Source of the DNA: Paraconexibacter algicola
GTDB lineage: Bacteria; Actinomycetota; Thermoleophilia; Solirubrobacterales; Solirubrobacteraceae
NCBI RefSeq assembly: GCF_003044185.1
Contig: NZ_PYYB01000001.1
Span: 1,302,001-1,366,000 of the forward strand
Reading direction: 5' to 3'
DNA: 64,000 nucleotides
Positions 25,777 to 29,744 of this stretch are shown here, piece by piece; positions within the stretch are counted from its first letter, which is position 1, and each line of letters opens with the position of its first letter. A program made the position numbers and the translations under genes. The notes below the pieces were generated by a model. It saw only the letters and a list, made by a program, of their open reading frames with translations, made no database searches and was not told the DNA's origin.

Positions 25777-26298
25777 TCAGTCCAGCCAGTGGGCGACGAG
25801 GTCGAGCCCGGCGCGCTCGGGCACGCGCTGCTCCTGCCGGGGCTCGCCGAGGTGCAGCAGGCCGAGCGCCCGCTCGTCCTCGCCCATGCCCAGCGCGGCA
25901 CGCCCCTGCGGGATCCGCAGCACGGCCGGGGTGCGCCAGTAGCCGGCGAGGCCGCGCGCGTGCGCGCCGAGCAGCACGAGGTAGGCGGCGACCGCCGCCG
26001 AGCACAGGTCCTCCTCGTCGACGACGGGGTCCTGCGGCGAGGTCACGTAGGACACCGCGACGAGCGTCGGGGCCCGGTCGAGCTTCGCGCCCGACCCCGC
26101 GATCTGCGCGTCGGCGGCCTGCTTCAGCCGCGCGAGCGAGCCCGGTCCTAGGACGCGGAACCGCCACGGGTTCGTGAGGTGGTGGTTCGGCGCCCACGTC
26201 GCGAGCTCGAACAGCTCCTCGAGCGTCGCGCGGTCGACGGGGGTCTCGCCGTAGGCCTTGTGCGTGCGGCGGGTGCGGACGGCGGTCTCGAGGTCCAT
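25777..26298 (-). CDS. Nitroreductase-family flavoprotein
   Basis: The 173-residue FMN-dependent oxidoreductase has the family start AVRTRRTHKAY, the segment ELATWAPNHHLTNPWRFRV, and LGLLHLGEP near the end. It is short for the family but complete. Such enzymes reduce nitro compounds, quinones or flavin-linked substrates with NAD(P)H; the substrate is unknown. The ATG overlaps the upstream gene stop (ATGA). Confidence 0.87.
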   Translation of the reverse strand: MDLETAVRTRRTHKAYGETPVDRATLEELFELATWAPNHHLTNPWRFRVLGPGSLARLKQAADAQIAGSGAKLDRAPTLVAVSYVTSPQDPVVDEEDLCSAAVAAYLVLLGAHARGLAGYWRTPAVLRIPQGRAALGMGEDERALGLLHLGEPRQEQRVPERAGLDLVAHWLD

Positions 26299-26945
26299 CA
26301 GGCCTCGCCCGCCTCCTCCTCGTCGTCCTCGTAGAGGGACTCGCAGGCCAGCTCGGTCCCGCGGTCGTCGAACAGGCGGATGTCGAGGTAGTCCTTGCGG
26401 TAGGCGTCGGGCGCGATCAGCGTGAAGCGGCCCTCCTGCACGACGCACTGGTCGACCGGCAGGTCCGCGAGCTCGGCCACGACGACCGCGCCGCGGTCCA
26501 CCAGCGGCCGGCCCCACACGAGCGTCATCGCCGCGACGTTGCCCTCCTCGCCGCGCCAGCCGCCGATGACCTCCTCGCAGAGGTCCAGCTGCCAGTCCGG
26601 GTTCGCCTCGGCGATCTCGGCGGTGTAGTCGGCGGTGGAGAAGAACCCGGAGGGCTCCTCGCCCTTCTCGGTGGCGGGCAGGTAGCTGACGTACCCGTAG
26701 AGCTCGTAGTTCTCGGTCGTGCGGATCGACGCCGGGATGTACGTGCGGCCGTTCCAGGTGCGGTCCGGGTACCAGGAGATCTCCCCGGTGGTCTCGCCGA
26801 GGTCCTCGTCGTCGTCCCCGTCGTCGATCCGCGCGCACGCGGCGAGGAACTCGGCCTTCAGCCGGTCCGCCCAGCGGCCGTAGGGGAGGAGCTCCTGCGG
26901 CGGCTCGGCGGCGAAGCGGGGGACGAAGCGATCCACGGGCGGCAT
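26298..26945 (-). CDS. Hypothetical protein, 215 residues
   Basis: I do not recognise this soluble, acidic protein. It has an Asp-rich stretch near residue 45, several aromatic motifs (ISWYPDRTWNGRTYIP, YELYGYVSYLP) and an Asp/Glu-rich C-terminus. No signal peptide or membrane segment is present. TAGACT (26955-26960, minus) lies 9 nt before the ATG, a likely leaderless promoter. It is coupled to the nitroreductase gene. Confidence 0.7.
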   Translation of the reverse strand: MPPVDRFVPRFAAEPPQELLPYGRWADRLKAEFLAACARIDDGDDDEDLGETTGEISWYPDRTWNGRTYIPASIRTTENYELYGYVSYLPATEKGEEPSGFFSTADYTAEIAEANPDWQLDLCEEVIGGWRGEEGNVAAMTLVWGRPLVDRGAVVVAELADLPVDQCVVQEGRFTLIAPDAYRKDYLDIRLFDDRGTELACESLYEDDEEEAGEA

Positions 26946-29374: not shown

Positions 29375-29405
29375 TTGACCTCAACCGTGGTCGAAGGTGC
29401 ACGCT
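29375..29405 (+). promoter_or_regulatory. MerR-type promoter with 19-bp spacer
   Basis: TTGACC (29375-29380) and CACGCT (29400-29405) are 19 bp apart, the over-long spacing typical of MerR-family promoters. A dyad TCAACC-GT-GGTCGA-type repeat (29381-29394) and an outer ACCT...AGGT pair (29378-29398) lie between them. ATG 29412 is only 6 nt after the -10 box. No merR gene is in the window. Confidence 0.5.
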
Positions 29406-29411
29406 GGATCC

Positions 29412-29744
29412 ATGACCACCTTCACCACCCCCAGCCAGCAGATCGTCGACGTCGTCACCACGTGGGAGGGCGTGACCACCCACTGGGGCGACCGCGGCGA
29501 GCTGTCGTTCCGCGTCGGCCGCCGCGAGATCGGCCACCTGCACGGCGATCACGCCGCCCACTTCCTGTTCTCCCGCGCGCTCGCGAGCGAGCTGCGCGCG
29601 GCGGGCCGGGTGGGCCCGCACCCGATCTTCCCCGAGCACCCGAAGCTCGCCGCCCGCCCGATCCGCAACGCGATCGACGTCGCCGACGTGATCGAGCTGC
29701 TGAGGCTCAACCACGAGCAGCTGCTGGCCCGCGCGGCCGCGTGA
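29412..29744 (+). CDS. DUF5519 (luciferase-family) protein
   Basis: The 110-residue product has the pattern of small actinobacterial DUF5519 proteins annotated as luciferase-family: [16 protein letters not shown], then [20 protein letters not shown] and a C-terminal [13 protein letters not shown]. They are unrelated to real luciferases in size and lack a known function. ATG 29412 is chosen from the MerR-type promoter just upstream; an in-frame GTG at 29397 would lie inside that promoter. It stands alone between oppositely oriented genes. Confidence 0.78.

What the first reader, a model, noticed from the sequence alone, without database searches (positions are those of the whole stretch)
29375..29412. 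MerR-type promoter driving a lone DUF5519 gene as a leaderless mRNA
TTGACC and CACGCT are separated by 19 bp with dyad symmetry between them, the geometry that MerR regulators correct by twisting DNA. The start codon follows 6 nt later. DUF5519 has no known role, so a metal, redox or drug signal would be a first functional clue.
Basis: partly seen in the sequence, partly recalled or inferred. Interest (0 to 1): 0.5.

Follow-up and report, generated by a model that had tools for sequence, protein, structure and literature searches.

The report
SoxR-type promoter before DUF5519 gene
A small gene of unknown function in an actinobacterium sits behind a conserved switch of the kind worked by the redox sensor SoxR, which suggests that its protein is made when redox-active chemicals are present.

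Summary
TTGACC and CACGCT lie 19 bp apart (29375-29405), with an imperfect dyad (TCAACC-GT-GGTCGA) right after the -35 element and ATG 6 nt on, before a PF17648 gene (former DUF5519, recalled). Not chance: 46 of 52 distinct homologous loci carry the same -35, dyad and spacing; 0 of 1040 shuffles do. In 31 of 52 the divergent neighbour is soxR, a MerR-family [2Fe-2S] sensor gene; three boxes repeat the E. coli soxS core exactly. The window's genome has soxR 1.1 Mb away. A profile built only from other genomes' boxes hits this genome three times at E<=10: an ABC-transporter promoter, this site (E 0.023), and soxR's own promoter (E 0.41). So the likely signal is redox-active compounds, through SoxR. 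A second MerR-like regulator fits the site as well by motif and is the main rival; nothing was tested at the bench. The leaderless geometry recurs: 16 of 47 boxed genes have ATG 37-38 nt from the -35 start; 26 have it at 54-93, 24 of these behind a Shine-Dalgarno-like motif. The protein model resembles the YjbR/MmcQ fold; its chemistry is unknown.

The parts
29375..29380 (+). -35 element TTGACC
   Evidence: TTGAC invariant in the 34 aligned boxes of homologues
29381..29394 (+). 14-nt operator dyad TCAACC-GT-GGTCGA (SoxR-box position)
   Evidence: same register as the E. coli soxS core TCAAGTTAACTTGA
29381..29399 (+). 19-bp over-long spacer typical of MerR-family promoters
   Evidence: -10 columns A2 and T6 conserved at this distance in 34 homologue boxes
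29400..29405 (+). -10 element CACGCT (weak: only A2 and T6 of TATAAT)
29412..29412 (+). predicted transcription start = A of the start codon (leaderless)
   Evidence: geometry; not measured
29412..29744 (+). PF17648 'Luciferase' (former DUF5519, recalled) gene, 110 aa

Best explanation
The site is a SoxR-dependent promoter. A SoxR dimer encoded elsewhere in the genome sits on the dyad in the 19-bp spacer; when its [2Fe-2S] cluster is oxidised by redox-active compounds it twists the DNA so that the -35 and -10 elements face RNA polymerase on one side, and transcription starts at or next to the A of the ATG. The PF17648 protein is therefore made from a leaderless message when redox-active compounds are present. 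With an ABC exporter-like transporter and soxR itself it forms a predicted regulon of three promoters in this genome. Shown here: the anatomy, its conservation, the link to soxR genes, the presence of SoxR in the genome. Inferred: binding, the oxidised-cluster signal (known SoxR mechanism), the start site, and that the protein acts on or protects against redox-active small molecules.
For: 46 of 52 homologous loci carry the box; 31 of 52 have soxR divergent upstream, and 30 of these 31 have the box. Three boxes (L005, L070, L073) have the E. coli soxS core TCAAGTTAACTTGA letter for letter. Window-genome SoxR: TIGR01950 186.1 bits against cut-off 116.9, 53% identical to E. coli SoxR over 135 residues, with CX2CXCX5C. 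SoxR and the PF17648 gene in 101 genomes (window's own and relatives): both 33, gene only 6, SoxR only 7, neither 55. Among the 39 genomes with the gene, the box is found in 30 of 33 with SoxR and 2 of 6 without. Profile R1, built without the window site, hits this genome at E<=10 only at the ABC-transporter promoter (E 2e-4), here (E 0.023) and at soxR's promoter (E 0.41). GC-rich boxes like the window's occur where no close MerR#2 relative was found: the L031 core (G025) is 13 of 14 identical on the other strand; L027 and L029 have TCAACC half-sites with soxR next door. In none of the 53 loci does the MerR#2 protein match better than SoxR.
Against: The window's dyad departs from TCAAG...CTTGA and scores near the bottom of the SoxR set: 27.3 bits, while 45 of 46 homologue boxes score 30.8-61.5 leave-one-out and one lower at 25.2. 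The MerR#2 matrix scores it higher (34.2 bits) and the MerR#2 profile ranks it first in this genome (E 0.009). The genus coded g12 (three genomes) has SoxR and the gene without a box, two genomes have a box but no SoxR found (G006, G067), and locus L081 has a soxR match without a box. Genome-wide E of 0.023 and 0.41 are modest and the tool calls such E-values rough. Co-occurrence counts are not corrected for phylogeny. No binding or expression data.
Confidence: 0.75

Rival explanations
1. The site is worked by the second MerR-like regulator of this genome (MerR#2, G000:C1:2508068-2508505, CDC-x5-C loop, below the cut-off of each NCBIfam family it matched), perhaps a metal sensor, or by both regulators.
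For: MerR#2's own divergent promoter is TTGACC-19-CACCAT with ATG also 37 nt from the -35 start and a TCGACC-CG-GGTCGA dyad, 11 of 14 identical to the window core; profile R2 from 12 MerR#2-linked sites of relatives hits the window site first (E 0.009), ahead of the ABC site (0.095) and MerR#2's own site (0.32).
Against: MerR#2 is only weakly associated with the gene (both 9, gene only 30, MerR#2 only 5, neither 57 of 101; p 0.035); where a MerR-family gene adjoins the homologues it matches SoxR better, and MerR#2 matches best in none of 53 loci; like GC-rich boxes occur in genomes without a close MerR#2 relative.
Confidence: 0.15
2. A decayed site: an ancestral SoxR box that has drifted and is no longer used in this genome; the gene is transcribed from another promoter.
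For: Imperfect dyad, weak -10 CACGCT, score near the bottom of the SoxR set; the gene does not adjoin soxR here; some relatives lack the box.
Against: The spacing, TTGACC and the ATG at exactly 37 nt are kept; the site is the second-best SoxR-profile hit of a 4.74-Mb genome.
Confidence: 0.1

Closest known systems
E. coli soxS promoter / SoxR
   Same: 19-bp spacer, dyad directly after the -35 element; core TCAAGTTAACTTGA shared letter for letter by three homologues of the window gene; SoxR 53% identical with the [2Fe-2S] cysteines
   Different: the target is a PF17648 gene, not a soxS-type regulator; the window's own core is GC-rich and imperfect; the message is predicted leaderless
Streptomyces coelicolor SoxR regulon (PMC4146615; abstract, passages and Introduction read)
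   Same: few direct targets, an ABC transporter among them
   Different: its six named targets are an ABC transporter and redox or tailoring-type enzymes; no DUF or luciferase is mentioned in its main text and what I read names no PF17648 member
YjbR / MmcQ (DUF419) fold
   Same: predicted fold of the window protein: Z 10.7 to DR2400 (2a1v, rmsd 2.9, 103 aligned), Z 9.9 to E. coli YjbR (2fki, rmsd 2.7, 102 aligned)
   Different: no PF04237 match at E<=1; profile comparison gives probability 1.6-2.1%

Membership tests
MerR-family promoter | -35 and -10 elements 19-20 bp apart with a dyad between them | tested here: met
SoxR-regulated promoter | fits a profile of soxR-linked boxes better than the rest of its genome | tested here: met
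   E 0.023, second of three hits; window site not in the training set
SoxR-regulated promoter | fits SoxR better than other MerR proteins of the genome | tested here: inconclusive
   the MerR#2 matrix and profile score it as high or higher
SoxR-regulated promoter | binding by SoxR and redox-dependent activation | not testable with these tools
   needs gel shift and expression
SoxR (regulator in the same genome) | TIGR01950 over cut-off and CX2CXCX5C | tested here: met
   motif definition from PMC4146615
leaderless mRNA | start codon at the transcription start | tested here: inconclusive
   geometry fits; no start site measured
PF17648 'Luciferase' (former DUF5519, recalled) | Pfam match over gathering score | tested here: met
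   61.3 bits against 23.7
YjbR/MmcQ (PF04237) | sequence-profile match | tested here: not met
   only the predicted fold is alike

The most novel reading that the evidence does not exclude
The SoxR-linked PF17648 proteins of this order form a subfamily of small enzymes or binding proteins that act directly on redox-active small molecules (quinones, phenazines, hydroxypyrones). Their histidine-rich H-x-H-G-D-x-x-x-H stretch, whose last H replaces the D of most distant members, would be the active or metal site, and the Pfam name (fungal luciferase, an oxygenase of 3-hydroxyhispidin; recalled) would reflect shared chemistry. soxR with this gene is then a two-gene redox-drug response unit that repeatedly switches between leaderless and leadered translation.
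Probability: 0.2. Interest if true: 0.7.

Novelty: new member of a known kind. Interest (0 to 1): 0.5.

Why it matters
A protein family without a known role gets a testable signal (redox-active compounds through SoxR) and a testable partner (a divergent soxR in 31 of 52 loci). It extends the known kind of SoxR target (transporters, oxidoreductases) to a family that four searches of the open-access library did not show linked with SoxR (most subscription papers are not held, and the 176-genome SoxR survey cited in PMC4146615 was not read). The repeated shift of the same promoter between leaderless and Shine-Dalgarno forms is a natural comparison for how leaderless genes arise.

Tried and rejected
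Chance match: rejected. The bare pattern TTGACC-N17..21-CACGCT occurs three times in the genome, so hexamers alone would not have convinced. A loose IUPAC dyad pattern with 2 mismatches gave 56 places against 9 for the reversed pattern, too noisy to define a regulon; profile R1 was used instead. Wider phylum: 79 of 396 genomes hold PF17648; in the 30 loci fetched (all from outside the order, up to 1.5 kb each side) a motif scan found no SoxR or MerR gene and the best box-like stretch scored 11/13 once, with half the right arm missing; so the link is seen only in this order, as sampled. That scan's MerR motif is narrow and would miss MerR#2-type proteins; the same motif found 30 divergent soxR genes, and a later tblastn found 31 (L081 added), which is the number used. 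YjbR homology by sequence: not supported. Solved structures: the single sequence found nothing and the profile only noise-level hits at E 0.03 or worse. E. coli yjbR lies about 6.5 kb from soxR with five genes between; taken as coincidence. Papers: SoxR with DUF5519, DUF5519, PF17648, and SoxR with luciferase family/domain phrases gave 0 papers each; searches on SoxR regulons, fungal luciferase, SoxR binding sites and SoxR with leaderless were seen as listings only, apart from PMC4146615. Rows dropped: 5 of 58 loci as duplicates; L079 left out of the tree by the program, and its upstream stretch was placed from an extrapolated start. In the co-occurrence counts two genomes with the gene only at E 4e-4 (G054, G093) were counted as lacking it, SoxR was counted at E 1e-30 or better and MerR#2 at E 1e-20 or better. 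Profile R1 was given 34 of the 45 distinct homologue boxes; the MerR#2 matrix held 13 sites including this genome's own, profile R2 held 12 without it.

Full report
WHAT IS THERE. The sequence at 29375-29411 reads TTGACC, 19 nt, CACGCT, GGATCC, then ATG at 29412. The first 14 nt of the spacer, TCAACC-GT-GGTCGA, form a dyad with one mismatch, placed directly after the -35 element. The gene 29412-29744 (110 aa) matches PF17648 'Luciferase' over its cut-off; that this is the family formerly called DUF5519 is recalled. Neighbours are a galT-like gene running away and a TetR-like gene running towards it. The window lies in contig C1 of a 4.74-Mb genome; the named homologues are labelled mostly Solirubrobacterales, Solirubrobacteraceae or Thermoleophilia, the rest Actinobacteria without an order or a candidate species.

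CONSERVATION. Searching 101 genomes (the window's own and 100 relatives) with the protein gave 41 with a match; a scan of GTDB genomes gave 28 loci. Thirty loci of the first set (the window's own included) and all 28 of the second, less 5 duplicates, make 53 distinct loci, 52 without the window. In the 250 nt upstream plus 30 nt, 37 of 52 score 13/13 on the TTGAC + TCAA...TTGA positions, 8 score 12, 1 scores 11 and 6 score 7-8. Dinucleotide shuffles reached at most 10 (0 of 1040 at 11 or more), and 2 of 1332 other stretches of the same loci reached 12-13. The consensus is TTGACTTCAAGCTCACTTGAACTTGTAnnnT, with the A2 and T6 columns of the -10 element invariant or nearly so (the boxes were cut as fixed 31-mers).

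THE REGULATOR. In 30 of 52 loci a motif scan finds, divergently upstream, a gene with a MerR helix-turn-helix motif and C-x-G-C-x-C-x5-C; all 30 have the box. A tblastn check with this genome's SoxR finds 31 divergent soxR genes (65-80% identical; L081 added, which has no box and only a 116-residue match) and one more on the same strand, L030. That cysteine pattern is the SoxR [2Fe-2S] signature (PMC4146615, Introduction). The E. coli soxS promoter, read from NC_000913, is TTTACC-TCAAGTTAACTTGAGGAAT-TATACT; the core TCAAGTTAACTTGA recurs letter for letter in L005, L070 and L073. The window's genome encodes SoxR at C1:241043-241492 (74% to a relative's protein; TIGR01950 186.1 bits against 116.9; 53% to E. 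coli SoxR).

GENOME-WIDE. Profile R1, built from 34 boxes of other genomes, has three hits at E<=10 in the whole genome: C4:193432-193462 (E 2e-4), before an ABC ATPase followed by an ABC-2 permease (Pfam); the window site (E 0.023); and soxR's own promoter (E 0.41). In two genomes of the same genus, G003 and G007, like ABC ATPases follow such boxes (L219, L209; judged by reading the sequences). G003's box there has a TCAACC left half like the window's. Other hits in 16 chosen genomes lie before genes that read as a quinone-oxidoreductase-like protein, an MFS transporter and other ABC proteins (30 loci looked at, read by eye, no family search run). In two of the 16, the hit lies at a MerR-type gene that is not soxR (L207, L208), so R1 is not specific to SoxR. 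Hits of R1 at PF17648 promoters in those genomes are partly circular, because such boxes trained it.

CO-OCCURRENCE. Of 101 genomes, 33 have both SoxR and the gene, 6 the gene only, 7 SoxR only, 55 neither (Fisher 7e-14, not corrected for phylogeny). Of the 39 with the gene, the box is found in 30 of 33 with SoxR and 2 of 6 without (p 0.0055). Against the reading: three genomes of one genus (G018, G038, G052) have SoxR and the gene but no box, and G006 and G067 have a box but no SoxR found (several genomes are incomplete).

THE RIVAL REGULATOR. A second MerR-like protein (MerR#2) has a divergent target with the same geometry: TTGACC, 19 nt, CACCAT, ATG at 37. A position matrix gives the window site 27.3 bits for SoxR and 34.2 for MerR#2 (sets of different size, so not directly comparable), and profile R2 from 12 MerR#2-linked sites ranks the window site first (E 0.009). 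Motif alone therefore cannot decide. What favours SoxR is linkage (31 of 52 loci adjoin soxR; MerR#2 matches best in none of 53), co-occurrence (MerR#2: 9/30/5/57, p 0.035), and like GC-rich boxes in SoxR-bearing genomes without a close MerR#2 relative: G025's core TCGACCACGCTTGA is 13 of 14 identical to the window core read on the other strand.

LEADERLESS OR NOT. In 47 boxed genes the distance from the -35 start to the first in-frame ATG is two-humped: 11 at 37 nt (window included), 5 at 38, one each at 34, 39 and 41, 26 at 54-93, and 2 with GTG only. Of the 26, 24 show a Shine-Dalgarno-like motif (a loose test); at 37-38 the leader is too short to hold one. In this genome soxR's ATG is at 38 (read) and the ABC gene's at 41. 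On a weakly supported tree of 52 of the 53 proteins the two forms need at least 12 changes (34, 39 and 41 were not counted as leaderless, and L072 and L074 were given their downstream ATG). So the leaderless geometry recurs and is not essential to the regulation; no start site was measured.

THE PROTEIN. The window protein and 26 homologues keep, among others, W18, G20, R28, G29, E30, G41-H42-L43-H44-G45-D46-H47-A48-A49-H50-F51, R66, H70-P71, R82 and D89. Homologues outside that set vary at 46-47 (for example HGDRVAHF, HGSRVAHF) but those seen keep H50. In distant members of the phylum HLHGD and H70 recur, and position 50 is D in 22 of the 26 rows aligned; two of the others have H there, and some rows are visibly wrong frames. 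So H50 is typical of this subfamily, not unique to it. The model (pLDDT 94.2, pTM 0.87) is most like YjbR/MmcQ proteins (Z 10.7 to 2a1v, 9.9 to 2fki); Foldseek's best E is 0.029, and there is no sequence-profile support. No function follows from the fold.

VERDICT. It is a new member of a known kind. SoxR binding, the redox signal and the 5' end are predictions.

Noticed in passing
G000:C1:2507974-2508505 (L057, L148): A second MerR-like regulator (CDCSTIDEC loop) with a divergent 72-aa membrane-like CC protein whose promoter is TTGACC-19-CACCAT with ATG 37 nt from the -35 start; similar boxes beside its relatives in other genomes.
   Followed up: partly
G000:C4:193432-193462 (L191): Strongest SoxR-profile site of the genome, before an ABC ATPase and an ABC-2 permease gene; similar ABC ATPases follow boxes in G003 and G007.
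   Followed up: partly
L032, L184, L185 (G038, G018, G052): One genus keeps SoxR and the PF17648 gene but shows no box before the gene: perhaps a natural loss of the link.
   Followed up: no
L187, L188 (G003, G055): Second, more distant PF17648 copies in two genomes show no SoxR box.
   Followed up: no
window 26298-26945: A 215-aa open frame on the minus strand without any Pfam match at E<=1.
   Followed up: no
NC_000913 4270658-4277933 (L254): E. coli yjbR, the fold relative of the window protein, lies about 6.5 kb from soxR with five genes between; probably coincidence.
   Followed up: partly
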